Shown here piece after piece: positions 41,208 through 63,190 of a DNA stretch of 64,000 nt. The position numbers and the translations under genes were made by a program. Every line of letters begins with the position of its first letter. Position 1 is the first letter of the stretch. This stretch comes from Acidobacterium sp. S8 (GTDB taxonomy: Bacteria; Acidobacteriota; Terriglobia; Terriglobales; Acidobacteriaceae), in the NCBI RefSeq assembly GCF_009765985.1, contig NZ_LMUM01000037.1:604913-668912 (forward strand), read 5' to 3'. The notes beneath the pieces were generated by a model, which had not been told where the DNA came from, searched no databases, and saw only the letters and a list, made by a program, of their open reading frames with translations.

Positions 41208-41266
41208 TAGTTGATTCTCCTTCCAAAAACCGCCTTTGGGGCGCAATATTGGGTCGATTAATGCAC

Positions 41267-45817: not shown

Positions 45818-45818
45818 G

Positions 45819-47063
45819 ATGCCACTGTCGAAATATAGATACCCGGGTATCTTCATGGAAGAGGTTGCCTCTGGAGCGAAATCAATCCAGGCGGTTGGCA
45901 CCAGCACAGGCGCCTTTATAGGTCAGGCTCCCGATGCGAGCGCCCATCTGAATCAGGCGTTTCCGATCAACAACTGGTCGCAGTTTATAAAAGAATTTGT
46001 GCCTGCTGACGGCGGCGTCAGCACGCCTCTGTCTCACGCTGTCGCGGGCTTCTACCAGAATGGTGGACAACGCTGCTATATCGTGAACATCCCCGCCGGA
46101 GACGCTATTGCGGGAATGGACAGACCGCAGCGAACCGGTCTTAAATTGCTGCAGGAAATTGATGAAATTTCTATTCTCGCGTGCCCGGGATATTCGGATG
46201 CTGCTTCCTATGAAGCCATGCTTTCTTATGCCGAAAACTCCGGCAATTGTGTCGCTATCCTGGACCCCCCTCTAAACGTGCCAGATATCGACCTTCTGAA
46301 GGTCGTCGGTACCGCTTCAGCACCGACGAAGCCAGCCAAGAAAGACCCGGATTCTCCAGGGGGAACTGCTGTCTCTCCGGCACCACCGACTGGGCTTCGT
46401 CCTCGAGTTAGCGCCAACGGTTCCGGCACACTCTACTTTCCCAGCATCGTCGTAGCAGATGCGCTTTCAGCCAAGGGAGACTTAGTGGAAGTTCCGCCCT
46501 CGGGGCATATTGCTGGGATTTGGGCGCGTACAGATGGAGAACGAGGTTGTCATAAGGCCCCGGCGAATATGTCCGTGCGCGGCGCTCTGAATCTCACTTA
46601 TCGCGTCACAAACGAGGAGCAGGCAGAGTTGAACTCCAGCGGTATTAACGTGATCCGCTTTTTTTCACGCGACGGGACGCTGGTGTGGGGCGCTCGAACG
46701 CTCGCCGAAGAAGCCAGTGAATGGCGTTATCTGAATGTTCGGCGCCTGATCAACATGATCAAGGAATCCATTCGTCGCAGCACAAGATGGGTAGTCTTCG
46801 AGCCAAACGCTGTGCCTACGTGGAAATCGATTCGATTTCAAGTGGAACAGTTCCTGCAACTCGTTTGGCGGGATGGCGCTCTTGTGGGCGCTTCGCCGGA
46901 AGAAGCCTTTTTTGTGAAATGCGATGCAGAAACGAATCCGCCCGAAGTAGTCGATGCCGGGCAGCTCGTTGTCCTTATCGGCGTAGCGCCGGTGAAGCCC
47001 GCGGAATTCATCATTTTCCGAATCGGGCAACATGCCGGCGGCGCTACTTCAGAAACTCTCTAG
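45819..47063 (+). CDS. Contractile tail sheath protein
   Basis: A 414-aa phage-tail-sheath-family protein. The N-terminus (YPGIFMEEVASGAKSIQAVG, then TSTGAFIGQAP) and C-terminal core (GARTLAEEASEWRYLNVRRL, RWVVFEPNAVPTWKSIRFQV, then FLQLVWRDGALVGASPEEAF) are typical. The C-terminal strand that links subunits ends EFIIFRIGQH. It forms the contracting outer tube that drives the inner tube through a membrane. This is the only sheath gene in the window, while Afp/PVC loci have three, so the sheath is built from one subunit type. A Pro/Lys-rich insert (about 165-195) is a surface loop. Confidence 0.93.
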   Translation: MPLSKYRYPGIFMEEVASGAKSIQAVGTSTGAFIGQAPDASAHLNQAFPINNWSQFIKEFVPADGGVSTPLSHAVAGFYQNGGQRCYIVNIPAGDAIAGMDRPQRTGLKLLQEIDEISILACPGYSDAASYEAMLSYAENSGNCVAILDPPLNVPDIDLLKVVGTASAPTKPAKKDPDSPGGTAVSPAPPTGLRPRVSANGSGTLYFPSIVVADALSAKGDLVEVPPSGHIAGIWARTDGERGCHKAPANMSVRGALNLTYRVTNEEQAELNSSGINVIRFFSRDGTLVWGARTLAEEASEWRYLNVRRLINMIKESIRRSTRWVVFEPNAVPTWKSIRFQVEQFLQLVWRDGALVGASPEEAFFVKCDAETNPPEVVDAGQLVVLIGVAPVKPAEFIIFRIGQHAGGATSETL

Positions 47064-47084
47064 CTCAAATGCAAGGAGACCGTG

Positions 47085-47564
47085 ATGGCCGAAGCTGCTG
47101 AAGGAGCACCTAAAAACGAGTCCGGGGCTCAGCCGGGCACCTTTCTCGATCCGTACCGCTCTTACAATTTCCAGCTCCTTATCCAGGGAGTGGTAGAAGG
47201 TCATTTCACCCAATGCAGCAATATGTCCATTGACGTCGAAGCGATCTCATACCGAGAAGGCGGGATATCGCAAATCGTCCATCGCCTGCCGGGGCAGGTG
47301 AAGTATAGCGATATTACGCTTCGTTACGGACTCACTAGCTCGTCTGATTTATTCGACTGGATGATGAGCGCAGTGAAGGGCAAGGTTGAAAGAAAAGATG
47401 TTCACATAGTGATGCTGGATGCAGACGGCGTCGAAGAGAAAATGCGCTGGAGCCTGGGAAAAGCATGGGCTTCATCCTGGCGAGCCGCCCCCCTCGACGC
47501 TCTCGGACGCGATGTTGCCATTGAGGAGTTGACACTGGTTTATGAATCCATCGACCGGTCATAA
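47085..47564 (+). CDS. CIS inner tube protein
   Basis: A 159-aa Hcp/gp19-type tube protein (phage tail region family). ATG 47085 is preferred over GTG 47082 because AAGGAGA lies 7 nt before it. Diagnostic stretches are FLDPYRSYNFQLLIQGVVEG, HFTQCSNMSIDVEAISYREG, HRLPGQVKYSDITLRYGLTS and the C-terminal ELTLVYESIDR. Hexamers stack into the tube pushed out by sheath contraction and can carry cargo in the lumen. It is the only tube gene visible here; Afp and PVC carry several. It overlaps the next gene by 23 nt. Confidence 0.92.
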   Translation: MAEAAEGAPKNESGAQPGTFLDPYRSYNFQLLIQGVVEGHFTQCSNMSIDVEAISYREGGISQIVHRLPGQVKYSDITLRYGLTSSSDLFDWMMSAVKGKVERKDVHIVMLDADGVEEKMRWSLGKAWASSWRAAPLDALGRDVAIEELTLVYESIDRS

Positions 47565-48879
47565 AGATCTTCTATCGGGCGACGTCTTGGTGCGGGCTGT
47601 TGCGCGCAAACTCAGGAACTGGCTGAACAACTATCTCATGGAACATGAATCGTCCGGGGTAGAACAGTTGGTCAGTGATGAAGCTATGCGAACATCCGAT
47701 CCGACAGATCCATCAGTTGCAGAGATGGAAGGATCACCGTTGCGACCGGGCCAATCGCTAGATTCTCCTGATCCTCACTCTTATAGGACGTCAGGCGGCC
47801 CTCCAGAAGACTGGCTGGAACGCGTTCGTAAGGGCGCTCCGGAATTATTGCTTCATCCGGATGAAGGCGGCACGCCGTATCAATCGGTATATGGGCAAAG
47901 TCTGCCGACGCAGATAAGCATGGCCGCTCCGAGATCAACTCCGACACAGATGTCTTCAAATGCAAGTTCCGTGTCATCTGACTCTAAAGCCCCATCTCCA
48001 ATCGAGGTGGACATAAGAGAAAGAGCCATCGAGTTTCCTGGCCTGAAGAGTTCGCTGAAGCGAACAACAATGGACCGCATGTTTTCGTATTTCTCGCGAA
48101 AAAGTAATTCGAGATCGGAGGCAAACGACCCGGCACCTTCCGAGCTTGATTCCGTGAATACGATGCCAGCGCCCTCCGCATTGGAATTTTCAGAAGCGAG
48201 CCCGCATCTCGATCGAAAATCGTTTTCCCGAAAGAGTGCGAAGCCAAGCTTCGTGCGACCACAGCTTGAGGAAGGCAATGTTTTGCCGCCCCAGGCGCCA
48301 GTTGCCCCATCACCGCGAAATATCGATAACCGCCGCACAGATGGCGGCTATCGCCCTTTGCATTCAGACTCAAACAACCGCGGAGTAAATCCCGCCGCCG
48401 TTCGGGTGAATTTTCCCGGAGCTGCTGCACCTATTGCATCTGCAACGTCCTCACACGAGAATGCGTCGTCCCTTCCGGTTAGAGTCCAAAATGGGGATAC
48501 CCAGGTACCACGGCCCGTTTCAAAGATCGGACAACCAAAGATGCCGCCGTCATTCAGCTGGGGCGCGCATCAACAGAAGCCTTATCCAACCTCTGAGAGT
48601 CTTGCCGGTTCCACGTACCGTCGCACGCCGGAACCCGCGCAGATTGACAGGAGATCGGCCCAATCCAAGCCGTCGTTTCCTCCTCTTGGCGCGCCAGGGC
48701 ATCACGCGACAACATGGGAGTCTTCGCTTCTTCGATCCGATGTCCTTCAAGACATCAGGCCAGATCTGTGGCCGGATCTACCTGAGGATCCGCGCCCACC
48801 GCAGCAGAATTTCGAAACTACAGCACGCGAATTGGATCGCTCCAAAAGGCTCAGTAGCGAGCAACAGGGAGACTACTGA
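47542..48879 (+). CDS. Large disordered protein between tube and LysM genes, unknown function
   Basis: A 445-aa protein with two short conserved-looking ends and a long low-complexity middle. Residues 10-48 are predicted helical (VLVRAVARKLRNWLNNYLME). Residues about 60-400 are rich in Ser, Pro, Arg and Asn, with no domain. The last 45 residues carry RPDLWPDLPEDPRPP and a charged tail. It starts inside the tube gene and its stop overlaps the LysM gene start by one base, so it is translated with the structural genes. By position it corresponds to Afp6, which is far smaller. Candidate roles are tape measure or ruler, baseplate adaptor, or lumen cargo; none is proven. Confidence 0.75.
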   Translation: MNPSTGHKDLLSGDVLVRAVARKLRNWLNNYLMEHESSGVEQLVSDEAMRTSDPTDPSVAEMEGSPLRPGQSLDSPDPHSYRTSGGPPEDWLERVRKGAPELLLHPDEGGTPYQSVYGQSLPTQISMAAPRSTPTQMSSNASSVSSDSKAPSPIEVDIRERAIEFPGLKSSLKRTTMDRMFSYFSRKSNSRSEANDPAPSELDSVNTMPAPSALEFSEASPHLDRKSFSRKSAKPSFVRPQLEEGNVLPPQAPVAPSPRNIDNRRTDGGYRPLHSDSNNRGVNPAAVRVNFPGAAAPIASATSSHENASSLPVRVQNGDTQVPRPVSKIGQPKMPPSFSWGAHQQKPYPTSESLAGSTYRRTPEPAQIDRRSAQSKPSFPPLGAPGHHATTWESSLLRSDVLQDIRPDLWPDLPEDPRPPQQNFETTARELDRSKRLSSEQQGDY

Positions 48880-49631
48880 TGGAACGGGCCTCTTTTTTAG
48901 TTGAAAAAACTGGCGACCGCATCGACTGCCTGTTGAATCCGGAAAATGTCGTTGTTCGTCGTCTCGCCGGTATCCAGCACCGCCATTCATCGAGCGGACC
49001 GATCACCGGCGGCAATTTGAAGGATGACCCTCTTCTCTACACGGGCGGAGGCATGACGGAGATCTTCCTTGATCTTTTGTTCGACACTTCTCTGACCAAC
49101 GATGCGACCACTTCTGAAGACGTTCGTGATTTGACTCTCCCGTTGGCCAAGCTTGCTGAAGGTGTCGAAGAGGAAGATAACGCCCAGCAGTTATCGATCG
49201 TCCGCTTTGTTTGGGGAAAGAAGTGGAATGTCCTTGGAGTTGTAGCCGCACTCGCCGAACGCCTGGAATATTTCAACGCGGATGGAGCTCCTCAGCGTTC
49301 CTGGCTGCGAATGCGTTTTGTGCGAGTGAGCAGCTCTTCTCAGGAATCTGAAGATAATTGGAGCGACGATGTCTCCCCGACGGAATTACCTGACGCCGAC
49401 GATGTGCCACTTGAAAATCTCAAGTTTTATGAAATGACTGGCACGGGTCAGGATGGTGGACAAGGGGTAGGCAGCACCGAGCGCATCGACGAAATCGCTC
49501 GGCGTGTCTATGGAAATCCCCTATGGTGGCGGCGCATCGCTAACTTCAACAATATCGATGATCCTTGGAAGATTGCTCCCGGCACACTTCTTAGCATTCC
49601 GCCAGATTCTGCCGCGGGAGGATCTGCATGA
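48879..49631 (+). CDS. CIS tube-initiator/LysM protein (Afp7-like)
   Basis: A 250-aa protein. The N-terminal tube-like domain (about 1-150: KTGDRIDCLLNPENVVVRRL, then GMTEIFLDLLFDTS) is the adaptor that seats the tube on the spike. The C-terminal LysM motif (about 200-245: IARRVYGNPLWWRRIANFNN, then PGTLLSIPP) is the signature of this eCIS component, used to recognise the baseplate or peptidoglycan. Its start shares one base with the previous stop, and its stop overlaps the spike gene (ATGA). Confidence 0.9.
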   Translation: MERASFLVEKTGDRIDCLLNPENVVVRRLAGIQHRHSSSGPITGGNLKDDPLLYTGGGMTEIFLDLLFDTSLTNDATTSEDVRDLTLPLAKLAEGVEEEDNAQQLSIVRFVWGKKWNVLGVVAALAERLEYFNADGAPQRSWLRMRFVRVSSSSQESEDNWSDDVSPTELPDADDVPLENLKFYEMTGTGQDGGQGVGSTERIDEIARRVYGNPLWWRRIANFNNIDDPWKIAPGTLLSIPPDSAAGGSA

Positions 49632-51148
49632 GCAGCGTCGCCACTCTTCCCCAATTTACTCTCGAGCTGAACGGAAGCTCATTACCACAAGGGTCTGTGG
49701 AGGCATTAACTGAGGTTCGGGTACAGCAGGCGTTGTCGCAACCAGCCCTGTGTGAGTTGACCTTTCAAATCGGGCGTGATCCATTGCCAGGAATCTTGAG
49801 CATTTCAACCGGAGCTCGCCTTCGACTTACCGTTGCGCCTGGCGCCTCACTTTTATTCGACGGTGAAGTAACCGCGATCGAATACACATATGAGCCTGCT
49901 TATCAGCGAGTCATTCGCATTCGCGGTTACGACGTATTACATCGCCTTCGGAAACGGCAACCGGTAAGAGTGCATGTTCAAATCACACCGGCAGATTTGT
50001 CCCGAGACCTGGTCGCTGACTTGTCATTAACGGTAACCGCTAGCGAGACGGGACCAATGATTCCCCGAATCATTCAATACAAGCAATCCGATTTTGAGAT
50101 GCTTGCCGAAGTAACAAGGCGACTGGGCCTGTATTTTACTTTGCGCGACGATGTACTCCATCTCATCACCCTTGAGGGCATAGATGATCCAATACCGCTG
50201 AAGTTAGGCACCTCATTGCTAGAGGCACGCGTTGAAGTCAACGCTGAGTCAGCCTGCCGGTCGGTCACAGCCCGCGGCTGGGATGCCGCGAGAGTGGAAG
50301 AACACGAAGGCGTTGCCGAACAGGCGCGCTCAGGGCGCGACGTGACTGTACAAGCGGCTCCTGGCAACTTCGGTGAGGATGGCAAGCGGGCCGTGGTGGG
50401 CGAAGTCCTTCCCGATGACATTCACGCTGAAGCTGTGGCACAGGCTGAGTTGGATCTTAGGACAGCAAAAGAGGTCACGTTCTGGGGCATTGCAGAAGGC
50501 AACGCCGAACTCATGCCGGGTACTCGCGTGAATGTTACTGGTGTTGCGTCGGCACTCGAAGGTCAGTATTCACTCACGACGGTTACGCACCTGTTCAATC
50601 GAAAGGCCGGGTTTACATCTGAAATTTCTACCGCGCCTTCAACATTCAAAAGCAATGCCAGGCCGCCATCCGCCACATGGGGTCTCGTTACCCAGGTAGA
50701 CGATCCAGAGTATCTGGGACGAGTGCAGGTTTCGCTCCCCGCCCTTGGCGACGTCGAAACAGGTTGGCTGGGCGTCCTTGCTGCCGGTGCGGGAGGAGGC
50801 AAAGGTATCGTTGCAATGCCGGATGTGGGCGATCAGGTTCTGGTGCTATTCCTCGATGGCGATACGTCCTCTGGTCTCGTGCTCGGCGGACTCTACGGCC
50901 TGCATGGCCCGGAAGACTATGGTGTGGAGGGCTCTTCGATTCGTCGCTATACTTTTTGCACTTCGGGTGGCCAGAAGATCCGCCTCGATGATACCGGCCA
51001 ATCGATTCGCATTGAGAACAAGGGAGGCAGTTTTGTTGAGTTGTCTCCAGAGAAGGTTCAGTTGCACTCCGAGGTCAATCTGGAGATCGACGCGCCGGGC
51101 CGAGAGGTCACAATTACCGGCAAGACCATTGACTTCAGGCAAGGTTGA
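49628..51148 (+). CDS. VgrG-like central spike (Afp8-like)
   Basis: A 506-aa spike protein of the phage D / VgrG type. The N-terminal gp27-like part (about 1-340: TLELNGSSLPQGSVEALTEV, HRLRKRQPVRVHVQITPADL) is followed by the OB-fold (about 345-425: WGLVTQVDDPEYLGRVQVSL, then AMPDVGDQVLVLFLDGDTSS). The C-terminal beta-helix (about 440-506: KIRLDDTGQSIRIENKGGSF) is short, so the spike has no fused toxin. Trimers form the puncturing needle. Overlaps the LysM gene by ATGA and abuts the tip gene with no gap. Confidence 0.92.
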   Translation: MSSVATLPQFTLELNGSSLPQGSVEALTEVRVQQALSQPALCELTFQIGRDPLPGILSISTGARLRLTVAPGASLLFDGEVTAIEYTYEPAYQRVIRIRGYDVLHRLRKRQPVRVHVQITPADLSRDLVADLSLTVTASETGPMIPRIIQYKQSDFEMLAEVTRRLGLYFTLRDDVLHLITLEGIDDPIPLKLGTSLLEARVEVNAESACRSVTARGWDAARVEEHEGVAEQARSGRDVTVQAAPGNFGEDGKRAVVGEVLPDDIHAEAVAQAELDLRTAKEVTFWGIAEGNAELMPGTRVNVTGVASALEGQYSLTTVTHLFNRKAGFTSEISTAPSTFKSNARPPSATWGLVTQVDDPEYLGRVQVSLPALGDVETGWLGVLAAGAGGGKGIVAMPDVGDQVLVLFLDGDTSSGLVLGGLYGLHGPEDYGVEGSSIRRYTFCTSGGQKIRLDDTGQSIRIENKGGSFVELSPEKVQLHSEVNLEIDAPGREVTITGKTIDFRQG

Positions 51149-51484
51149 ATGCTCGTCATTACGGAAGATGCGGGGGTGTTTTGCAAGCATGGACCGGGCA
51201 AGGTGTCGAACAAGCCCAGTCAGAACTGGCTGACTATTGCCGGGAGAAGAATTCTTGTAGAAAGCGATCCCGAAGGAAGATCGATCTCGGGCTGTCCGAG
51301 TGTAGTACCTTTTAAGCCCTGTCTTGTAACGCTGAAAGTAATAACTGGCTATTCGAACTTCATCCGGGCCGACGGCCATCGAATTTGTTTGCAGTCTGTC
51401 ACTGGATTTACCGATGGCACTCCGCCAGGGGTGGTGAAGTACGAAGTGAGATCCGCAGGGCAGAATTTTGTATCGGAGATATAA
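51149..51484 (+). CDS. PAAR-like spike tip (Afp10-like)
   Basis: A 111-aa protein directly after the spike gene, starting with the base after its stop codon. It has a Cys/His-containing N-terminal part (FCKHGPGKVSN, SGCPSVVPFKPCLVTLKVIT) and a conserved end (SNFIRADGHRICLQSVTGFT, then DGTPPGVVKYEVRSAGQNFV). This is close to the small conserved tip proteins of eCIS loci, which sharpen the VgrG trimer with a PAAR-like cone. Its stop overlaps the gp25 start (TAATG). Tip assignment rests mainly on position and length. Confidence 0.72.
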   Translation: MLVITEDAGVFCKHGPGKVSNKPSQNWLTIAGRRILVESDPEGRSISGCPSVVPFKPCLVTLKVITGYSNFIRADGHRICLQSVTGFTDGTPPGVVKYEVRSAGQNFVSEI

Positions 51485-51918
51485 TGAACGGCCGTTACCA
51501 GGCTTGGCGCTTTGTACACCCCGATTTTGATCCAACAGAGAACGCCGCGGGATTGCGTGTCTCCAATCGTGGCGGCATCGATATGGTGGATGAGCATGCG
51601 TCCGTCCGGCAGGCGATTCTTCTCCTCCTTTCCACTCGGCCGGGAGAGCGAGTCATGCGTCCGAACTATGGCTGTAATCTTCACCGGCTCATCTTTGCTC
51701 CCAATGATGAAACCACTGCTGGACTTGCTATCCATTACGTAGAACAGGCCATTCAGCGGTGGGAAACGCGCATTAAATTGCTTCGCATCGATGCAACAAA
51801 ATCTGCCGAAGTGACAGTATCCGGAGTTCTGGAGATCACCTTCGAGTACAAAGTGCTGTCCACCCAGCGAACAGACCGTCTAACATATCCGTTTGATCTG
51901 ATGGGAGAGCGTGCCTGA
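51484..51918 (+). CDS. gp25-like baseplate wedge protein (Afp9-like)
   Basis: The 144-aa product starts at ATG 51484, overlapping the tip gene stop; the longer frame from 51385 would overlap that gene. It shows the gp25 core: MVDEHASVRQAILLLLSTRP, then GERVMRPNYGCNLHRLIFAP, including the usual Glu/Arg pair around RPGERVMRP that joins sheath and baseplate. The C-terminal half (IRIDATKSAEVTVSGVLEIT) is the helper beta-domain. Its stop shares a base with the gpJ start (TGATG). Confidence 0.92.
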   Translation: MNGRYQAWRFVHPDFDPTENAAGLRVSNRGGIDMVDEHASVRQAILLLLSTRPGERVMRPNYGCNLHRLIFAPNDETTAGLAIHYVEQAIQRWETRIKLLRIDATKSAEVTVSGVLEITFEYKVLSTQRTDRLTYPFDLMGERA

Positions 51919-54503
51919 TGCCGTTTCCCTCTCCAAATCTGGATGACCGCACCTTCACTCAATTGGTCGAAGAAGCGCGGCAGAAAATCATGGCCAGCTG
52001 TCCAACATGGACCGATCTGTCCGTGGGCGATCCCGGAATGGCGTTGGTGGATGTCTTCGCTTTTCTCACCGAAACGATGATTTACCGCCTCAATCGAGTT
52101 CCGGACAAAGCATATGTTGAATTCCTCAAATTACTTGGCGTCAATGTACTCCCGCCTGGGGCTGCGCGGGTCCGTCTTGTCTTCAGCTTGAGAGCGCCCA
52201 TAGCAAGAGCCATTGAAATTCCCCGAGGCACTCGCGTGACTGTCGCCCGTGCTGATAGCAGTGGCTCGGCTCCGATATTCGTCACGGTTGATAACGCCTT
52301 AATACCTGCAGGCAAAACTGAGGTCGATGCCACCGCGCTTCATTGCGATCTGGTCGAAGCAGAGTTGCTGGGCAAGGGAACAGGTGCGCCTGGTCTCGTC
52401 GTTCAAGTCGCACGACCTCCCATTATCGCCCCCACAGAAGATGGGTTTGATCTTGTCGTAGGAGTCAAATCTGACGACTTGGATCTAACTGCACGGTCTG
52501 CCGGTCGGCAGTATGGAGAACAGTTTTACCGGACATGGAGAGAAGTCGAGAACTTTACGGAGGTAGGTGCGGACGGCTATGTGTACGTCGCTGACCGCAT
52601 GTCCGGCACGATTACCTTTGCGCCCGCTGTCAGAATGCGTAGCGAAACCGGATCGTTAGAAGAAGCAGCTCGCGCATTAGCCGCAGTCCCTCCGCTAAAT
52701 GAGGAGATACGCGCGTGGTATCGCCGGGGCGCGGGGCCAAATGGCAACGTTGCGGCAAACATGCTGACGGTGTTGAAAGATCCTATTGCCGGAGTCTCGG
52801 TGACGAATCCGGAAGCAGCGGTAGGGGGTCGTTCCGCGGAAACGATCGACAATGCTCTGCTGCGCGGACCGCAGGAATTGCATTCGCTGCAGAGGGCCGT
52901 CACCGCGCGCGATTTTGAACTCATAGCTGCCCGATCGGGCTCCGTCTCTCGGGCCCGTGCCTTTACTAAGGCTGCCCTCTGGACCTACGCACCTGCTGGA
53001 ACTGTGGAAGTCGTGTTGGTTCCTTACGTTGAGGAGGAGAACCGCAACGATGGTGTAAGTGCCGCTGAGATACGGGCTTTGCAGACAGATGAGGCGCGGG
53101 AGCAAATCCAGCGAGCACTCGATGAGCGGCGTCCCTTGGGTACGGCCTGCATTGTGACGTGGGCACGATACAAATCCGTGAAAGTCAAAGCTCGAGTCGT
53201 CAGCCACGTTGAGGAAGACTGTGCTGCACTCAAAAGCCGCGTTCTCGAGCGGCTTTATCAGATGATCAACCCGGTCCCCGCCGGCATATATCCTGGTTGG
53301 CGTTTTGGACAAGCGCTCAGAATTTCCAACATATATGACGCCGCGCTTGCTGAGCCTGGAGTGAGCTACGTCGACAACACCCAGTTCATCGTAGAAGAGG
53401 TCCCCGAGCGTGATATCGCATGCCTGGAGGCTGATTTCTTCCAACCGCAGACCTGGTATGCGGGCAAAGACGATACCGTTTATCGCTCCCTCGATGACGG
53501 GGAAGGCTGGGCTGCCGCGGGAAAGTTTGAGAATCAAACTGTCTTCGCCATCAAAGCTCACCCGGAGTTGCCGGGAGTAGTTGCTTTATCCACGCAAAGC
53601 TCGAATGATCAGCCAGGATCGCAGATCCATCTTTCCATCGATTGTGGCGATACTTGGATCGAGAAAGCCCGAGGAACTTACCTGGTCGAGGATATCGCTT
53701 GGACAACCCGCGATGGAGCGCCGGTCTTGCTGATGGCCACTGATGTTGGCCTCTACGAACTCGGAATGCAGGCAGATAGCTCGCCCATTCAGGTCTTTGT
53801 GCGCTCCGGCGATGAAGCTGTCGGATATTACTCCGTTATTGCCACGAAAGATTTCAGAGGCGATATCAGCGTTGCCATTGCAGCCAGAAATAGCGGAGGT
53901 ATTTTTCTTTCGAGTCAGGGCGGTAAAGGAAACACTTTTCGCAATATTGGTATGGCTGGAGAAGATGTCCGCGTTCTCGCCGTGCAAAAAGATGGCGCTC
54001 TGTCCTTTCTGTGGGCGGGCTTAGCAGCACCTGTAGTTGGCGACCCGGGCAAAGGTTGTTGTGCTTGGCAACTGTTAGGTGCCGACGATCCTGCGGATGG
54101 CTGGCAGACATTCAATAAAGACTGGACTGGCGGAAGCTGCGTGAACCTGGCCTTTTCAGGATCGAGGATCTTTGCCGGAACATACGATGCCGGAGTGATC
54201 ACCTTGGAGGAGAGAAACGATCGGGCTACCTGGCAGGCTCCGGATGTTGGCTGCGGACTCCCGATCGCATCCAAGCAACACCTTTTTCAACGGATCGACG
54301 CTCTTTCCTCTGACTCTCAGCGCGACGTGGTGCTCGCGGGTACGAAGTCCGGAATCTACCGCACAAATGATGATGGTCAGAGCTTCCAATTGTGCTCCAG
54401 CAAAGTATTCACCGATAAGGTGATGCTGCCAGCTAACTGGCTGTTTTGTTCCGGCGAGCATGAAATCGAGGTCGTATCCGAAGATGAAACAGGCGCAAAT
54501 TAA
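51918..54503 (+). CDS. Baseplate J-like protein fused to a C-terminal beta-propeller (Afp11-like)
   Basis: An 861-aa wedge protein. Residues 1-490 match 'putative baseplate assembly' gpJ proteins: DVFAFLTETMIYRLNRVPDK, VEFLKLLGVNVLPPGAARVR, RAVTARDFELIAARSGSVSR and WRFGQALRISNIYDAALAEP. A second module (about 505-850) is made of BNR/WD-like repeats with Asp-box-like signatures (YRSLDDGEGWAA, LSIDCGDTWIEKA, YRTNDDGQSFQ), suggesting a beta-propeller of six or seven blades. Typical gpJ baseplate proteins do not need this module. It would project from the baseplate and could bind sugars or a membrane partner. No fibre gene is visible, so it may substitute for one. Confidence 0.88.
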   Translation: MPFPSPNLDDRTFTQLVEEARQKIMASCPTWTDLSVGDPGMALVDVFAFLTETMIYRLNRVPDKAYVEFLKLLGVNVLPPGAARVRLVFSLRAPIARAIEIPRGTRVTVARADSSGSAPIFVTVDNALIPAGKTEVDATALHCDLVEAELLGKGTGAPGLVVQVARPPIIAPTEDGFDLVVGVKSDDLDLTARSAGRQYGEQFYRTWREVENFTEVGADGYVYVADRMSGTITFAPAVRMRSETGSLEEAARALAAVPPLNEEIRAWYRRGAGPNGNVAANMLTVLKDPIAGVSVTNPEAAVGGRSAETIDNALLRGPQELHSLQRAVTARDFELIAARSGSVSRARAFTKAALWTYAPAGTVEVVLVPYVEEENRNDGVSAAEIRALQTDEAREQIQRALDERRPLGTACIVTWARYKSVKVKARVVSHVEEDCAALKSRVLERLYQMINPVPAGIYPGWRFGQALRISNIYDAALAEPGVSYVDNTQFIVEEVPERDIACLEADFFQPQTWYAGKDDTVYRSLDDGEGWAAAGKFENQTVFAIKAHPELPGVVALSTQSSNDQPGSQIHLSIDCGDTWIEKARGTYLVEDIAWTTRDGAPVLLMATDVGLYELGMQADSSPIQVFVRSGDEAVGYYSVIATKDFRGDISVAIAARNSGGIFLSSQGGKGNTFRNIGMAGEDVRVLAVQKDGALSFLWAGLAAPVVGDPGKGCCAWQLLGADDPADGWQTFNKDWTGGSCVNLAFSGSRIFAGTYDAGVITLEERNDRATWQAPDVGCGLPIASKQHLFQRIDALSSDSQRDVVLAGTKSGIYRTNDDGQSFQLCSSKVFTDKVMLPANWLFCSGEHEIEVVSEDETGAN

Positions 54504-55017
54504 ACGGCTCCTACCCGACGTTTTCCAGCGAACTGCAACTCCGGGCAGCCCACTGCTCGCGATTCTTGACGCCATGGAAGCGATGCACGACCTGCCGGAG
54601 TCAATACTTGCTAACCTTGACCTTATCTTCGATCCACGCAGGGCTCCGGATCGCTTCGTTTCTTATCTTGCTGGATGGGTTGATCTGGGTGTAGTTTTAG
54701 AGGACGCCCGCGGGGGGGCTCGATCCACAGCCCCTTCCCTGTCTACTGGCTTGGGTCGCCTTCGAGAACTAACCGCGTCAGCTGCGAGACTGTCTGAGTG
54801 GCGAGGTACTCGAAAAGGGCTCCAGCTCTTTCTGGAGACGGCCACAGGCATGAATGGCTTTGAGATAGACGAACAGGTGAACGGGCTTGACGGCAAACCA
54901 AAACCGTTTCATCTCCGGGTTAAGGCGCCTAAAGTGCTCGTTCCGCACCGGCCTCTTATTGAAAAGATTATTGAACTTGAAAAACCCGCATATGTGACCT
55001 ATGAATTGGAGTTCTAG
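54484..55017 (+). CDS. Baseplate protein I (gpI, Afp12-like)
   Basis: A 177-aa phage-tail-I-family protein, the second wedge component. ATG 54484 (MKQAQIKRLLPDVFQRT) fits the family N-terminus better than the ATG at 54460. Further family traits are PGSPLLAILDAMEAMHDLPE, IFDPRRAPDRFVSYLAGWVD, LSEWRGTRKGLQLFLETATG and the end KPAYVTYELEF. It overlaps the gpJ gene by 20 nt and precedes the membrane-anchored PASTA protein gene by 20 nt with a good ribosome site (GGAGGAGAG). Confidence 0.9.
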   Translation: MKQAQIKRLLPDVFQRTATPGSPLLAILDAMEAMHDLPESILANLDLIFDPRRAPDRFVSYLAGWVDLGVVLEDARGGARSTAPSLSTGLGRLRELTASAARLSEWRGTRKGLQLFLETATGMNGFEIDEQVNGLDGKPKPFHLRVKAPKVLVPHRPLIEKIIELEKPAYVTYELEF

Positions 55018-55037: not shown

Positions 55038-55862
55038 ATGGCGAAGCTTTTTCAAATTACGCTTCCCGATGGTATGTCCGAGTTGAACCTCGACAGCCAG
55101 GGGCGGGCGACAGCGCAATATGTGATCGTGAACAAAAGTGCGCGTTCCCTTGACGCCCGGGCGGTTCTGGTTGCATTACCACAAAGCAATCCTTCTGATC
55201 CGAATCATCCCGTAAACAAGGGATGGGTCAAAATCGCCGGCAGCACTGATCAGCACATGGATGCGGACAAAAGCTGTACTTACACGGTCAACATTGCCGT
55301 TCCTCTTAAGACTCCCGCAGGAAAGAATGCGGCAGGAACATACAGCTTCCGTCTGGACGTTGTATCAGTTGCAAAAACGGATGAAGGAGATTCCAGCCAG
55401 CCCCTGAAGTTCACGGTTGCGAGTGTTGCGCCCCCGCAGCCCAAATGGGGTTTGATCGCTCTGATTGCGATAGTGGTAGTGTGCGTCATTGGCTTGCTCA
55501 TTTGGCTATTAAGCGGGTCCAAGCCAAAAACGACTAAAACCGGAAATTCAGGCGCCGGTTCTACAACGACGCAAACGGCTGCCCCATCTCCGGTTCCTGC
55601 AAATTTGGTTGGCATGAATTTACATGATGCAAGCGTTGCTTTGGGCAAGGCAAATCTTAGTGTCGGTGTCTTACAAGGAGATGGCAATATAGTTATTTCT
55701 ACAAGTCCCGTTGCAGGCGCGACAGCAAGTAATGGCAAGGTCGACTTGACAACCCAGTCCTCCACCGCCTGCACAGCGGCTACGCCATGTGTTTTCAAAG
55801 GAGTTCAGGCCACTGCACGAATACGCACTTTGGCTGGCCCAGCTCAATATCGTCCTCGGTGA
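55038..55862 (+). CDS. Membrane protein with N-terminal beta-domain and a PASTA domain (CIS-associated)
   Basis: A 274-aa protein right after the last baseplate gene. An N-terminal Ig-like beta-domain (1-130: TAQYVIVNKSARSLDARAVL, GTYSFRLDVVSVAKTDEGDS) has no signal peptide, so it is presumably cytoplasmic. One transmembrane helix follows (about 138-160: LIALIAIVVVCVIGLLIWLL). The outer part has a Ser/Thr linker and one PASTA domain (about 186-245: VPANLVGMNLHDASVALGKA), a fold that binds peptidoglycan fragments in kinases and penicillin-binding proteins. The topology would link a cytoplasmic CIS to the cell wall. The last 25 residues after PASTA fit no domain and may be altered. Confidence 0.72.
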   Translation: MAKLFQITLPDGMSELNLDSQGRATAQYVIVNKSARSLDARAVLVALPQSNPSDPNHPVNKGWVKIAGSTDQHMDADKSCTYTVNIAVPLKTPAGKNAAGTYSFRLDVVSVAKTDEGDSSQPLKFTVASVAPPQPKWGLIALIAIVVVCVIGLLIWLLSGSKPKTTKTGNSGAGSTTTQTAAPSPVPANLVGMNLHDASVALGKANLSVGVLQGDGNIVISTSPVAGATASNGKVDLTTQSSTACTAATPCVFKGVQATARIRTLAGPAQYRPR

Positions 55863-55918
55863 AAGGCTCTCCTGATGAATGGCATCTGTGTTCACATTTA
55901 GGGACTGGAGGTCAGGGA

Positions 55919-56458
55919 ATGGGAACGAAAGTGCTGGTGGTGGTTTTAGTAGTGGTTGTAGTCATTTTCGTAGTGTTTACGGTGATGGGTGCAAACACAA
56001 ACAAAAGCGTGAAAACAACAGGCAATCCGACCACAGATGCTTCTGGTTTCAATCCCGCGGACTACTCGCTGACAAACAGCCTGGGACCTGTGTTGGCAAA
56101 GTTCGGTCCTAAGCTCAGCGCTAAGCAAATGAAGCCATCTGCCACCAGCTTTAACTTGCAGACAAAGCCTACATTTGTGGTGACTGTCGCAGCTGATTCG
56201 AGCAATCAGTTCCGAACAGCCAAGTTTCAGATGCGTCCCGCCTCCGGCACTCCCTGCGCACTCATTTCTTATGTGGCTCTAAACCCACCGTCCAATGTAG
56301 ACAGCAGCCTGAAAAAACAGCAGTCCGATTCGAATTCGAAGAATAGTAGTAGCAAATATCAGCCTTCCATCGTGGTTCTCAGTGGTGGAGGAACCATCAC
56401 CGTGCAGCGAGGGTCAGGGGCACCCGCCGGTAGTTGTGTTGTAAGCCTGAATCAGTGA
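55919..56458 (+). CDS. Single-pass membrane protein, unknown (CIS-associated)
   Basis: A 179-aa product from ATG 55919 (GGAGG 8 nt upstream). The longer frame from 55787 overlaps the PASTA gene and reads as noise. A very hydrophobic N-terminal helix (residues 5-24: VLVVVLVVVVVIFVVFTVMG) anchors a beta-rich domain (about 60-179; KFQMRPASGTPCALISYVAL, PSIVVLSGGGTITVQRGSGA) with two Cys. A short Ser/Asn/Lys-rich insert separates two parts. I do not recognise the family. Same direction as the CIS genes and convergent with the 6-TM gene 6 nt later. Confidence 0.68.
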   Translation: MGTKVLVVVLVVVVVIFVVFTVMGANTNKSVKTTGNPTTDASGFNPADYSLTNSLGPVLAKFGPKLSAKQMKPSATSFNLQTKPTFVVTVAADSSNQFRTAKFQMRPASGTPCALISYVALNPPSNVDSSLKKQQSDSNSKNSSSKYQPSIVVLSGGGTITVQRGSGAPAGSCVVSLNQ

Positions 56459-56464
56459 AGCGAT

Positions 56465-57154
56465 CTACACGACGACTTTAATAACCGAGATGACTCCGCC
56501 GATCAAATAAATCACGATCCATATTCCCGCGAATGCACAAATTACAAGGGTTGCAACCTGATCTACGATGCTGACCAGAAAGCCCGGTACAAATCCATAT
56601 AGAAATGCGATCACAAGATTAGCTAAGAATGATGTCAGAATAATGAGGACCAGGCCCTTATTCTGCAGAAATCGCTGGTGCGATACGACAAGAGCAACAG
56701 CAAAGATGATCTTGGTGAGCATGATTAAGCTGAGCGCTATACGTGCCGTGCCTGTATCGAAACTTCCCCATATCGCAAAGTAGGCAATTGTTCCGAAGAT
56801 AGGCGCGAGCAGCAAACCTAACATCAGGAAAAGCATTGCCAGGCTCTTGAAAAAAGTGACGATGCACCCCAACAACAACAGGATGGCAACGATTACCGTC
56901 GCAATCCCCTGTACTTTACTTTGCACACGCTCGGGTACCAGCAGGGCGATACCGATAACCAGCGCCGTATAAAAGCTCAATCCGTCCAGAAAGGCCATGG
57001 AAGGAATGGCATATCCCTTGATGGATACATTTAAGGCGTTAGCGGAAGAGGAAACATTGCTTATCAGCGCTATGGAAGAAAGCTCGATCAGCACAGTAAT
57101 TCCGATAACGATCAGAGCAACCACAAAGACCGGTTTGCGCATGCCATCGAGCAC
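56465..57154 (-). CDS. Six-helix integral membrane protein, unknown
   Basis: A 229-aa protein made mostly of hydrophobic helices (about 9-32, 52-74, 82-102, 105-130, 138-160, 168-190 and 200-226), so six or seven passes. The loops are short and no catalytic motif is visible. I do not recognise the family. It is the only minus-strand gene among the CIS-linked membrane proteins and shares a 549-nt divergent region with the zincin-like gene. Location in the cluster suggests, but does not prove, a CIS link. Confidence 0.65.
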   Translation of the reverse strand: MLDGMRKPVFVVALIVIGITVLIELSSIALISNVSSSANALNVSIKGYAIPSMAFLDGLSFYTALVIGIALLVPERVQSKVQGIATVIVAILLLLGCIVTFFKSLAMLFLMLGLLLAPIFGTIAYFAIWGSFDTGTARIALSLIMLTKIIFAVALVVSHQRFLQNKGLVLIILTSFLANLVIAFLYGFVPGFLVSIVDQVATLVICAFAGIWIVIYLIGGVISVIKVVV

Positions 57155-57703
57155 TTGAACGAACCTCAGTGTAAGTCTTGAATGCGATTCAGTACTTAAC
57201 CTTATGATGCGACCATAAGAGCCAATAAAATATTTTCACATCGATATGGTTTCACCCGCAGCAACGAATTCTACTCTTGTTTAGCTGCTTTGCAATCGTG
57301 AAATATAGGATTTTTGATGAATGTAGTCGCGATAGTTGTTGCGTTGCAAGCAGCAGATTCTTCGGACGCAGCTTCCAACTTTTGATCTCGCCGAAAAAAT
57401 GATGTGCGTCAATTCAGGGATGGGTATATAGTGAACGCCGTGGTGAGGTAAGTTCTTATAAATGGGGCCGGGCGCCTGTCCGAAGTCATAATTATCGCGG
57501 CTGCGCAGAAACGATTTTGGTTATAACCTCACCACTCTTGTGAGATGACGGGCTCAACGCTGTGCGCATCCTGCATGCACAGCCGATTCGAACGAAACAC
57601 CGACTTCCTATCTAAGGTGTATTTCGCATCGAATCGTGATTTCGAACTAGGTTGATACATGCTGTTTTTAAGACGGCATCTCTCTCTCGGAGGTGAACCT
57701 TAA
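57155..57703. other. Long intergenic region with a cluster of inverted repeats (possible structured RNA or regulatory site)
   Basis: 549 nt without a gene. Three inverted repeats are packed into 57440-57636. The first is GTGGTGAGGT (57440-57449) with ACCTCACCAC (57526-57535), a perfect 10-bp closing stem around 76 nt. The second is GCTGTGC (57559-57565) with GCACAGC (57577-57583). The third, directly adjacent, is CGATTCGA (57584-57591) with TCGAATCG (57629-57636), which encloses further pairing (CGAAA/TTTCG, CACC/GGTG). None is followed by a T-run, so they are not simple terminators. It could be a leader structure of the zincin-like gene, a small RNA, or a set of operators. Confidence 0.5.
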
Positions 57704-58825
57704 ATGGTCGAGCGTATTTTCAATGATCCAATTGCTTGGGGGATTCTTGCAGCTTTCGCTGGTGTGGCCTTCCTCTTCTCGCTAATCTTCAAAGACAGAT
57801 TTGACAATGACACATCCGCCAGCGGCGCGACTTTACGAGGTCTCGAAGGCGCCATCCTCGCGGTGCTTGGCGGATTAATTGCGCGGGCCTTCATCAGTCT
57901 TCTGCTGGGAATGGCGAACAACTCGCCGGCCGCCGGATTAGCTATTGGTTGGGGTTTTTTCCTGATCCCCGGCATCGTCGATACGATCCCGTATCTCCTG
58001 CATAGCCAACCTTTATTGACCACCACTGAAAATCTGCTGTTGTTTGCAACGATGGTCGGCGGACTGTCTGGAATGGCAAGCGGCCTCTGGCGTATCTACG
58101 CGTGGGATGGCTTAGGCTGGATCGGGTTTCCACTCGATGTTACCTGGGCGCTTGCTGGCAATACCGTAGGCTGCCTCCTGCACATCATCAATTTCGTGGG
58201 CTATTGGGCCTCGCAGATTTTCTCAGATGGTTCGTGGGGTAATCACGGCACAGAGACCCGGGAGAACGCTCACCGATATGACAAGGGATTTGGTCTGAAA
58301 CCTGGTTTCGCGTTCACCCAGGGCGCGGTTATGAGCAATCTCGACGAGGCTCCTGGTCAAGACCTGTACCGGCATGAAAGAACTCATGTATGGCAGAATC
58401 GTGCTTTCGGTCCCATGTATACCCTTACCTACTTGGGATGGATGGCAGTCTGGCTTATCCCTTCAATATTTGCAGCGATCATTAAAATCGGCGTTTCCCG
58501 GACCTTCTCCGGACCAAAGGATTGGTGCTATTTCAACAACCCATGGGAAACGTGGGCTTACAAGGTTCAGAACGCGGAGCGCACCGATATCATCGGCAAT
58601 GATGATGAAGATCGGAAGATTATTTGGCCAGGTAAGTGGGTAATTGCCTGGTCCATCCCCTTCTTCCTGGTTGCTACCGTGTTAGCAGTTCTTGTAGTGA
58701 ACTCCGTGTGGGTAGACAGTGGAATGGCTGGTGCGACTGCGCAGACTCACTCCGCAGCACCAAAGTCTAAATCTCAACCACAGAGTAAGCCCCACGGTGC
58801 GCCTGCTCCGGCGAAGCACAAGTGA
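57704..58825 (+). CDS. Polytopic membrane protein with HExxH zincin-like motif
   Basis: A 373-aa protein with about seven membrane helices (near 12-30, 49-72, 78-100, 108-129, 145-172, 238-262 and 318-340). Between helices 5 and 6 is a soluble segment holding HERTH (H224, E225, H228) inside DLYRHERTHVWQNRAFGPMY, the pattern of a zinc metalloprotease active site. A late Glu (ETWAYKVQNAERTD, around 285) could be the third ligand. The upstream GFAFTQGAVMSNL strand is also family-like. The C-terminal tail is Pro/Ala/Lys-rich, ending PAPAKHK. Strong ribosome site (GGAGG). I know no named function; an intramembrane or membrane-bound protease is plausible. Confidence 0.72.
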   Translation: MVERIFNDPIAWGILAAFAGVAFLFSLIFKDRFDNDTSASGATLRGLEGAILAVLGGLIARAFISLLLGMANNSPAAGLAIGWGFFLIPGIVDTIPYLLHSQPLLTTTENLLLFATMVGGLSGMASGLWRIYAWDGLGWIGFPLDVTWALAGNTVGCLLHIINFVGYWASQIFSDGSWGNHGTETRENAHRYDKGFGLKPGFAFTQGAVMSNLDEAPGQDLYRHERTHVWQNRAFGPMYTLTYLGWMAVWLIPSIFAAIIKIGVSRTFSGPKDWCYFNNPWETWAYKVQNAERTDIIGNDDEDRKIIWPGKWVIAWSIPFFLVATVLAVLVVNSVWVDSGMAGATAQTHSAAPKSKSQPQSKPHGAPAPAKHK

Positions 58826-59158
58826 TCCCGGCAGTAAGAATGGCGAAAATGCAAGTTGACTCAGAGCCTTAAAAAACCTAAACGGTTAATGGCCAGGTGC
58901 GACAACTGGGATTACTAGGGAAGAGAAATCATCTTACCTGGAAGAAAAAGGTTATCTATCGATCGCGGTCATGCGGCTCATAAGATAAGTTACTTTGATG
59001 ACAGACTCCTCCCCCTGAAGACCTAGTCTGGATCATCTCTCTCTGAGCCACCCGAGTTAGAAGAGCTTTACATCTTGCCGTTTAGTTTCGCGTATTAGGC
59101 ACTCGCCGAGACGCTAAACAAGACGCTTGAAAAAATGAAAGTCGAGGAGGGAGTCAAA
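58826..59158. other. Intergenic region with a hairpin before the 4-TM gene
   Basis: 333 nt, no gene seen. A hairpin near the downstream gene has GTTTAG (59080-59085) pairing with CTAAAC (59114-59119). It continues with TTTCG (59086-59090) against CGAGA (59107-59111) after a 2-nt bulge. No T-run follows. The stem lies 27 nt before the GGAGGGAG ribosome site, so it could influence translation. No clear promoter was picked. Confidence 0.4.
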
Positions 59159-59599
59159 ATGTCAGTATGGAATTGGATTCAGCTGGCGGTGGCCATCATC
59201 GTCGCAATTGTGGCGTATCTTGGAAAGGGCTGGAGCAAATGGCTGGGATACGCAATGGTCTTCGGCGCCGGAGCTCTAATCATCGGCGTGAGCATCGTTC
59301 AACAGGATTATAGGTTTATAGGCTTTGGGATATTAGCGATAATAATGGTCCCGCTCGGGCTCATAGCCAATGCGACCGCCGAGTCTAAGGCCGATGACGA
59401 TACGCTGGGTGGGGAAATCAGCAATTTGCCTCCATGGGTTATGTGGGTCGCTGCGGTTCTCTTTGTAGGTGCCATCATCCCATTTTTTGTTCTAAAGGCA
59501 CCTCCGAACCTGAGCGGTGGAGTTCCTCAAACCCAGCAGACCGAATTACAGACGAAGCACGCGAATCCAAAGCCCGCCAAGGCGCCCGCCAAACATTAG
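59159..59599 (+). CDS. Small multi-pass membrane protein (CIS-associated)
   Basis: A 146-aa product from ATG 59159, with GGAGGGAG just upstream; the ATG at 59135 lies before the ribosome site. Four hydrophobic helices are seen (about 3-22, 28-48, 54-72 and 92-112). A polar loop (AESKADDDTLGGEISNL) lies before the last, and the C-terminal tail is Pro/Ala/Lys-rich, ending KAPAKH. The tail resembles that of the zincin-like protein at 57704 (PAPAKHK), hinting at a shared partner or localisation. Family unknown. Convergent with the signalling unit, 7 nt away. Confidence 0.65.
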   Translation: MSVWNWIQLAVAIIVAIVAYLGKGWSKWLGYAMVFGAGALIIGVSIVQQDYRFIGFGILAIIMVPLGLIANATAESKADDDTLGGEISNLPPWVMWVAAVLFVGAIIPFFVLKAPPNLSGGVPQTQQTELQTKHANPKPAKAPAKH

Positions 59600-63189: not shown

Positions 63190-63190
63190 T

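What the first reader, a model, noticed from the sequence alone, without database searches (positions are those of the whole stretch)
55038..59599. Membrane-protein module attached to the CIS operon
Five genes after gpI encode membrane proteins: a PASTA-carrying single-pass protein, a single-pass beta protein, a 6-TM protein, a HERTH polytopic protein and a 4-TM protein. The PASTA protein's N-terminal domain lacks a signal peptide and its PASTA domain would face the cell wall, so it can bridge baseplate and peptidoglycan. I know of no described CIS with exactly this set.
Basis: partly seen in the sequence, partly recalled or inferred. Interest (0 to 1): 0.75.

Follow-up and report, generated by a model that had tools for sequence, protein, structure and literature searches.

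The report
Membrane anchor module of phage-tail injector
Three membrane-protein genes that travel with one branch of phage-tail-like injection machines in six bacterial phyla probably dock the machine to the cell's own membrane, in the gene slot where many related machines carry fibres for binding other cells.

Summary
After gpI come (1) a bitopic protein: cytosolic Ig/MSP-like domain, one TM, outer PASTA; (2) a small N-anchored protein; (3) a six-TM protein on the OPPOSITE strand, tail-to-tail with (2); then, after 549- and 333-bp gaps, a HExxH membrane protein and a 4-TM protein. Genes 1-3 are the conserved core. A scan blind to them (gpJ propeller patterns) gave 24 loci: Ig-TM lies within 570 bp after gpI in 22/24 and on another contig in the other two; the 6-TM gene is in 21/24 genomes, one copy each; the small gene in 18/24 loci. 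All three occur together in six phyla. Plasmid CIS of Deinococcus, Rhodovulum and Paracoccus repeat it. Of 12 CIS loci without the propeller, none has the small or 6-TM gene; one has a bitopic Ig-like protein after gpI. The 6-TM model has the cation-diffusion-facilitator fold without its metal motif. Ig-TM holds the place and predicted topology of Streptomyces CisA without detectable homology. Best reading: a membrane docking/trigger platform of an intracellular CIS lineage. Conservation is shown; docking, wall binding and triggering are inferred. HERTH and 4-TM are sporadic. The searches named found no description in print.

The parts
45134..55017 (+). CIS structural operon: Pvc16_N cap, sheath, tube, variable u445, CIS_tube, VgrG-like spike, u111, gp25, gpJ, gpI. 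No AAA+ ATPase, tape measure or fibre family matched in these ten proteins (rest of the genome not searched for them)
   Evidence: Pfam; NCBIfam
51918..54503 (+). gpJ (Cis11-type) with a C-terminal beta-propeller-like extension (about residues 500-861), candidate docking partner of the Ig-TM protein
   Evidence: Baseplate_J and weak Sortilin-Vps10 matches, TIGR02243; closest solved chain is 652 aa
54460..55017 (+). gpI (Tail_P2_I-like), last baseplate gene
55038..55862 (+). Core 1, Ig-TM-PASTA protein: cytosolic MSP/PapD-like Ig domain (1-130), TM (137-159), linker, PASTA (183-240)
   Evidence: within 570 bp after gpI in 22 of 24 loci
55919..56458 (+). Core 2, small bitopic protein: N-terminal TM plus about 130-residue extracytoplasmic domain; many relatives end in a GGxLxVxCx(2-5)CxVxL-like stretch
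56465..57154 (-). Core 3, six-TM protein, tail-to-tail with core 2; CDF (YiiP/ZnT) membrane-domain fold by model
57704..58825 (+). Accessory: polytopic HExxH...E (HERTH) protein, metallopeptidase-like motif
   Evidence: sporadic
59159..59599 (+). Accessory: 4-TM protein, seen in three Acidobacteriota loci only (window, G142/L086, L116)

Best explanation
Genes 1-3 encode the membrane docking and trigger platform of a distinct CIS lineage that works from inside the producing cell. Shown: the three genes are tied to CIS loci whose gpJ ends in a propeller, together in six phyla (a seventh, Chloroflexota, shows the Ig-TM gene only, on short contigs); the Ig-TM protein sits just after gpI, the slot that tail fibres or CisA hold in other CIS. 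Predicted from sequence or model: its Ig domain is cytosolic, one helix crosses the membrane, PASTA repeats face the wall; the small protein is N-anchored with an outer domain; the third is a six-helix CDF-fold membrane protein. Inferred, not shown: the cytosolic Ig (MSP/PapD-like) domain binds the baseplate, most likely the gpJ propeller and/or gpI; the outer domain holds or senses peptidoglycan; the 6-TM and small proteins form the membrane base through which the tube is driven; wall damage or contact passes through the Ig-TM protein to release sheath contraction. Firing may be outward (T6SS-like) or lethal to the producer (as for Streptomyces CIS); the data do not decide. HERTH and 4-TM are optional accessories.
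For: Scan blind to the module: 24 gpJ loci, Ig-TM within 570 bp after gpI in 22 of 24, in 25 of 25 genomes with the window's own; 6-TM in 21 of 24 genomes, one copy each; small protein in 18 of 24 loci. Replication in plasmids: the 5 of 72,556 records with a gpJ match over at least 80% of its length are all among the 6 records with a 6-TM match; the four opened carry all three genes. Specificity: 6-TM in 1 of 297 Acidobacteriota drawn; strong Ig-TM matches in 2 of 396, the same two with full-length gpJ; in 120 genomes of an Arthrobacter family, 6-TM in 4, three of them with propeller gpJ, none of the four with only non-propeller gpJ; small and 6-TM genes in 0 of 12 non-propeller CIS loci opened. 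One branch of a quick gpJ-core tree holds all 28 propeller rows (SH-aLRT 100). Ig-TM proteins show no N-terminal hydrophobic signal (31 of 31) and 23 of 31 carry PASTA. Analogy: CisA is encoded just downstream of baseplate genes, is bitopic N-in/C-out, is needed for contraction and is predicted to touch Cis11 (PMC12237407); a six-TM protein is the co-conserved putative anchor of haloarchaeal T6SS (PMC11566945).
Against: No binding, localisation or mutant data. Published cytoplasmic CIS of Deinococcota and Roseiflexus were seen unattached (PMC12998442), so membrane partners need not mean stable anchoring. The positive-inside signal for Ig-TM is weak (K+R higher on the N side in 17 of 31, lower in 10). 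Outer domains vary, so wall binding cannot be general. The Ig-like domain is not exclusive: G406, a CIS without the propeller and without the other two genes, has a 679-aa bitopic protein with a partial Ig match (E 6.2e-7) right after gpI. The next gene after gpI is not always Ig-TM: the small gene stands between in seven loci, HERTH in L075, an unrelated ORF in L082. A CDF fold would also suit an ion transporter. In Paracoccus (L132) and G496 the 6-TM gene lies apart from the Ig-TM gene, G496 shows no small-protein match, and in three MAGs no 6-TM was found. G649 has the module but no gpJ match at E<=1e-20; its contig ends beside the module.
Confidence: 0.6

Rival explanations
1. Damage-triggered self-killing: the module is a sensor, not a stable anchor. 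Free cytoplasmic particles are recruited only when the PASTA domain detects a broken wall, and firing kills the producer, as proposed for CisA in Streptomyces.
For: Closest solved sheath and gpJ chains are, from my recall, those of the S. coelicolor CIS; same slot and predicted topology as CisA; caspase-like genes upstream of the CIS and caspase/CHAT genes near L078, L079, L080.
Against: Caspase genes were seen at a few loci only; no stress data; no homology to CisA detected.
Confidence: 0.35
2. The Ig-TM protein is a modified tail fibre carried on the particle, as tCIS Cis13 ends in a TM helix, and the 6-TM protein is unrelated to assembly.
For: Fibre genes follow Tail_P2_I and Afp11/12 homologues in about 90% of cases (PMC12923769, passages); tCIS precedent (PMC8894136, passages).
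Against: No fibre family or DUF6519 (eBAP5) matched; the Ig domain resembles MSP/PapD folds; the tie with the 6-TM gene is left unexplained.
Confidence: 0.2
3. Immunity: the 6-TM and small proteins protect the producer from its own tube or effector.
For: 6-TM gene on the strand opposite to the CIS genes in 25 of 27 loci, hence probably its own promoter.
Against: One conserved copy per genome across phyla, whereas effector-immunity pairs usually vary; the Ig-TM protein is not explained.
Confidence: 0.12
4. Lysis/release cassette that frees particles as eCIS.
For: RlpA-like gene near the CIS in window, L080, L096.
Against: No holin or endolysin domain in the five proteins scanned; no fibre family matched for a released particle; a cytosolic Ig domain is not needed for lysis.
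Confidence: 0.08

Closest known systems
CisA of Streptomyces CIS (SCO4242; eLife 2025, PMC12237407)
   Same: Gene just downstream of baseplate genes; one TM; N cytosolic, C outside (predicted here); proposed adaptor between particle and membrane
   Different: No detectable homology. The protein at that place in Streptomyces sp. NBC_01324 has two zinc ribbons, a TM and an F5/8C-like domain; here Ig/MSP-like, TM, PASTA, plus two further conserved membrane genes
Haloarchaeal T6SS putative anchor Hbor_38620 (Sci Adv 2024, PMC11566945)
   Same: Six-TM protein co-conserved with one subset of CIS clusters
   Different: That one has a cytoplasmic domain of about 150 residues; this one is 229 aa without such a domain and comes with two bitopic partners. 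Sequences not compared
Thylakoid CIS Cis12/Cis13 (PMC8894136)
   Same: Intracellular CIS held at a membrane through baseplate/fibre-position proteins
   Different: There a fibre-like trimer ends in a TM helix; here a bitopic Ig-TM-PASTA protein
T6SS membrane complex TssJLM
   Same: Works like: membrane base for a contractile tail
   Different: No T6SS membrane family in Pfam matches the five window proteins
CDF transporters (YiiP, ZnT)
   Same: Membrane-domain fold of the 6-TM model
   Different: No C-terminal domain, no paired [HD]xxxD metal motif, no sequence similarity found
G406 post-gpI protein (679 aa, unnamed Acidobacteriota, L074)
   Same: Bitopic protein with a partial Ig-like match right after gpI of a CIS
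   Different: No PASTA hit in Pfam, no propeller gpJ, no small or 6-TM gene in the stretch

Membership tests
PASTA domain protein | Pfam PF03793 over curated cut-off | tested here: met
   29.5 bits vs 23.2; 23 of 31 relatives match at E<=0.01
CisA family | encoded directly after the gpI/baseplate genes | tested here: met
   window: 20 bp after gpI; compared with L135 and PMC12237407
CisA family | bitopic, N-terminus cytosolic, C-terminus outside | tested here: inconclusive
   predicted only: no N-terminal hydrophobic segment, TM starting at residue 103-155, charge bias weak
CisA family | sequence and domain homology | tested here: not met
   the CisA-position protein of NBC_01324, chosen by place and not by comparison with SCO4242, scores E 0.018-0.11 against the three profiles in one-sequence searches, and has zinc ribbons and F5/8C
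CDF (cation diffusion facilitator) | six-TM CDF membrane fold (on a predicted model) | tested here: met
   VIA-align Z 17.3, rmsd 2.9, 187 aligned to YiiP 8f6h; CDF entries fill ranks 1-32, first other row Z 5.9; Foldseek alone not significant, no row at E<=0.001
CDF (cation diffusion facilitator) | paired [HD]xxxD metal ligands in TM2 and TM5 (motif recalled) | tested here: not met
   no acidic/His i,i+4 pair in at least 15 of 21 rows; D57 alone invariant near TM2
CDF (cation diffusion facilitator) | sequence family match | tested here: not met
   no CDF hit in Pfam at E<=5 for 21 members nor in PDB sequences at E<=10
T6SS membrane complex | TssJ, TssL or TssM (IcmF) homologues | tested here: not met
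   no such Pfam match at E<=1 in the five window proteins; fold not compared
eCIS with tail fibre | fibre with eBAP1-5 N-domain after gpI | tested here: inconclusive
   no DUF6519 (eBAP5) or fibre family in the window genes scanned; models of eBAP1-4 not available
DUF4157 / eCIS_core (for HERTH) | PF13699 over cut-off | tested here: not met
   12.9 bits vs 22, E 0.13; HExxH itself conserved 8 of 8
CIS lineage with propeller gpJ | full-length gpJ match including C-terminal extension, one branch of the gpJ-core tree | tested here: met
   (quick tree)

The most novel reading that the evidence does not exclude
A further mode of CIS action: a multi-phylum lineage whose baseplate, through a gpJ propeller, is seated on a dedicated three-protein inner-membrane platform made of a wall-sensing Ig-TM-PASTA tether, a small anchored subunit and a CDF-fold gate, so that wall state outside controls firing of a machine inside. 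It would be a compact, independently evolved counterpart of the T6SS membrane complex, shared by monoderms and diderms; the bitopic Ig-like protein of G406 hints that such adaptors in the slot after gpI are wider still.
Probability: 0.4. Interest if true: 0.85.

Novelty: new variant of a known kind. Interest (0 to 1): 0.74.

Why it matters
How fibre-less intracellular CIS find a membrane and decide to fire is open. The cases with mutant data that I saw are CisA and the Cis13 helix of thylakoid CIS, and the 2026 fibre catalogue left loci without fibre candidates out of scope (PMC12923769, passages). Here is another, apparently unrelated solution with three conserved membrane genes, present in named Rhodovulum, Paracoccus, Arthrobacter and Deinococcus strains, so the question becomes directly testable. 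If PASTA senses wall damage, it would link peptidoglycan state to a contractile weapon or suicide device.

Tried and rejected
Sheath as marker in the family: 24 of 150 genomes hit; the four such loci I opened (L025-L028) hold no other recognisable part of this CIS beyond one weak CIS_tube match. PASTA protein in plasmids by tblastn with the window N-domain: no hit; the Rhodovulum N-domain finds the three Rhodovulum plasmids only. Weak Ig-domain hits in Actinomycetota: 31 of 168 genomes at E<=1e-3, two strong, both known CIS genomes; the four next best opened (L122-L125, 3.2-3.5 kb each) carry an N-terminal hydrophobic segment and no CIS gene in the stretch, so the fold is common but I do not count them in this family; the other 25 were not opened. 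G649, 6-TM without gpJ: contig ends beside the module (L115). AP014802.1, 6-TM hit without CIS genes: read as the remnant of a deleted locus because both flanks match DSM 1374. PHROGs, NCBIfam and PADLOC gave no convincing family for the module proteins; no phage match for the 6-TM protein. Promoter- and terminator-like sites not above shuffles. The careful tree did not finish; the quick tree was used, 7 truncated gpJ rows were dropped before it, and L098 and L099 were not given to it. Two comparison rows of that tree (L074, L046) had not been checked for the module when it was drawn; I checked them afterwards and found the partial Ig match in L074. In-print searches, all in the open-licence PMC library; subscription papers were not seen.
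Full report
What is there. The window (G000:C29:604913-668912) holds a compact CIS operon at 45134-55017: Pvc16_N cap, sheath, tube, a variable 445-aa gene, CIS_tube, VgrG-like spike, u111, gp25, gpJ and gpI. Pfam found no AAA+ ATPase, tape measure or fibre among these ten; the rest of the genome was not searched for them.

Conservation, near relatives. Of 150 genomes of the family, 3 match the PASTA protein (the window's own, G142, and G076 weakly at 1.9e-4) and 3 the HERTH protein (own, G142, and G077 at 3.7e-19 inside a 1989-aa ORF). Two of the four genomes of the genus in that draw, G070 and G119, have neither. G142 keeps the whole string in the same order and strands, with a second HERTH gene. 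G496, from another family of the same phylum, keeps gpJ-gpI-Ig-TM, with PASTA-like repeats, and a 6-TM homologue about 15 kb on, in the direction of the CIS genes; no small-protein match was seen there. A plasmid of Deinococcus sp. AJ005 has gpI-HERTH-PASTA-small protein and a convergent 6-TM gene.

Conservation, blind scan. A gpJ alignment of four rows was used on the genome collection (one genome for each of 84,980 species); the two patterns chosen lie in the C-terminal extension, so the scan knew nothing of the module. 89 stretches matched a pattern and 24 loci were confirmed, from Acidobacteriota, Gemmatimonadota, Actinomycetota, Pseudomonadota, Chloroflexota and Verrucomicrobiota. The Ig-TM protein lies within 570 bp after gpI in 22 of 24; in seven of these, all of the Arthrobacter type, the small gene stands between. 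In the other two, L076 and L082, the contigs stop 98 and 1365 bp after gpI, L082 with another ORF in that space, and the protein lies on another contig; genome-wide it is in 25 of 25 with the window's own. The 6-TM gene is in 18 of 24 loci and 21 of 24 genomes, one copy each; it was not found in G527, G528 and G545, whose CIS contigs are all under 7 kb. The small protein is in 18 of 24 loci at E<=1e-3. Its profile was trained on 14 sequences and also found it, in place, in 14 loci outside the training set (L087, L088, L091, L094, L095, L098, L115-L119, L131-L133; weakest L088, 3e-4). All three genes together are seen in Acidobacteriota, Gemmatimonadota, Actinomycetota, Pseudomonadota, Verrucomicrobiota and Deinococcota; in the two Chloroflexota MAGs only the Ig-TM gene. 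The full set of five is seen in three Acidobacteriota loci (window, G142, L116); HERTH also in L075, L078, L087; 4-TM nowhere else.

Controls. The 6-TM profile matches 1 of 297 Acidobacteriota drawn, the window's own. Of 396 Acidobacteriota, only G000 and G496 match the Ig-TM protein strongly and only they have full-length gpJ, though 86 have some gpJ match; eight further genomes match the Ig-TM profile weakly, between E 3e-5 and 0.01, over TM or PASTA stretches. In 120 genomes of an Arthrobacter family the 6-TM gene is in four; three have propeller gpJ; the fourth, G649, has no gpJ match at E<=1e-20 and its contig ends beside the module. Four genomes with only non-propeller gpJ lack it, and G536, with both kinds, has one copy. 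Twelve non-propeller loci were opened (L126-L130, L135-L139, L074/L141, L140). None shows the small or 6-TM profile (best small-protein E 0.28). For the Ig profile eleven are blank (best 0.11), but the twelfth, G406, has a 679-aa protein right after gpI with one TM (334-352) and a partial Ig match at residues 134-226 (E 6.2e-7), no PASTA: the Ig-like domain is thus not strictly bound to the propeller lineage. In 72,556 plasmids gpJ matches 53 records, 5 over at least 80% of its length, and all 5 are among the 6 with a 6-TM match (13 of the 53 gpJ records were not listed). Four of the five were opened and carry all three genes; the fifth, NZ_CP015422.1, was not opened but also matches the Ig domain. 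The sixth, AP014802.1, lacks the CIS genes between flanks shared with DSM 1374 and keeps a truncated 6-TM gene. A quick tree of the gpJ core puts all 28 propeller rows on one side of a branch against 12 comparison rows (SH-aLRT 100).

Anatomy. The window's Ig-TM protein is modelled at pLDDT 82.5, pTM 0.51, with a confident beta-sandwich, TM helix 137-159 and PASTA 183-240. Its N-domain resembles MSP (VAP), ASH and PapD-type folds (top rows E 3e-7 to 1e-4, one Ig-like superfold, so no function follows). Of 31 family members 23 carry PASTA; others carry TIG, Big_2, ricin-B, META or propeller domains; three Rhodobacterales members carry PASTA too. None of the 31 has a strong hydrophobic segment near its start, so the N-domain should be cytosolic; the charge rule agrees only weakly. 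The 6-TM protein is modelled at pLDDT 88.3, pTM 0.83. VIA-align puts CDF transporters at ranks 1-32, Z up to 17.3, and the first other entry at 5.9, though Foldseek alone was not significant and sequence shows nothing. The paired metal motif is absent; R6, D57, a K or R at 80, Q82, K148 and D198 are kept in 21 of 21. The gene is on the strand opposite to the CIS genes in 25 of 27 loci, with stops within 110 bp in 20 of 27 (G496 is not among the 27). HERTH keeps H224, E225, H228 and E282 in 8 of 8, a gluzincin-like motif (recalled), but is under the eCIS_core cut-off.

Mechanism. Fibre genes lie downstream of Tail_P2_I and Afp11/12 homologues in about 90% of cases (PMC12923769, passages). In Streptomyces that slot holds CisA, bitopic, needed for contraction, absent from the purified particle and predicted to touch Cis11, the gpJ homologue (PMC12237407, passages and Discussion). 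In haloarchaea a six-TM protein marks one subset, which includes the two systems seen at the membrane (PMC11566945, passages). In tCIS a fibre TM helix and a Cis12 extension hold the particle (PMC8894136, passages). Here slot, predicted topology and co-occurrence with an extended gpJ all point to docking at the producer's own membrane. That the propeller is the contact is my inference from co-occurrence; that PASTA reads wall state is inferred from what PASTA domains are known for (recalled). Whether firing is outward or suicidal is open. Related Deinococcota CIS were seen unattached (PMC12998442, passages and one section); the D. grandis locus that I opened, one of the strains whose particles they purified, lacks the module. 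Geller et al. 2021 (PMC8213781, passages) names DUF4157 as an eCIS core domain with HExxH, the nearest known company for HERTH.

Verdict. It is a new variant of a known kind: a membrane adaptor set for an apparently intracellular CIS lineage, not homologous by my tests to the CisA-position protein I compared or to T6SS membrane families in Pfam.

Noticed in passing
window 38782-43279 (-): Two caspase-like (Peptidase_C14) genes and an RlpA-like DPBB/SPOR gene upstream of the CIS; RlpA relatives stand beside the 6-TM gene in L080 and L096, caspase/CHAT genes near L078, L079, L080.
   Followed up: partly
window 47542-48879: Gene between tube and CIS_tube evolves fast (35.6% to G142 against 76-91% for its CIS neighbours), looks proline-rich in Deinococcus and Paracoccus, and has no known family; possible cargo or length factor.
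   Followed up: no
window 53415-54503: gpJ C-terminal extension (weak sortilin/BNR-type propeller match) marks the lineage; eleven of twelve comparison gpJ match the profile only up to about position 500, L074 up to 855 in a 680-aa protein.
   Followed up: partly
L074 10119-12158: G406 CIS without propeller has a 679-aa bitopic protein with partial Ig-like match right after gpI, a possible further type of membrane adaptor.
   Followed up: partly
L134 (AP014802.1) 11581-12168: Rhodovulum sulfidophilum DSM 2351 plasmid lacks the CIS genes kept by DSM 1374 and retains a truncated 6-TM gene: apparently a natural deletion.
   Followed up: partly
L135 12509-13618: CisA-position protein of a Streptomyces plasmid CIS has two zinc ribbons, a TM and an F5/8C NADase-translocation-like domain.
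   Followed up: partly
L024 9615-15584 (-): HERTH domain forms the C-terminus of a 1989-aa ORF in G077 with no CIS recognised in the stretch.
   Followed up: no
window 59606-63931 (-): Two histidine kinases with receiver domains and a SpoIIE-type phosphatase next to the module, on the opposite strand to the 4-TM gene.
   Followed up: no
L136 3056-8560: Deinococcus grandis pDEGR-1 CIS has several partial sheath-like ORFs on the strand opposite to gpJ, and no module.
   Followed up: no
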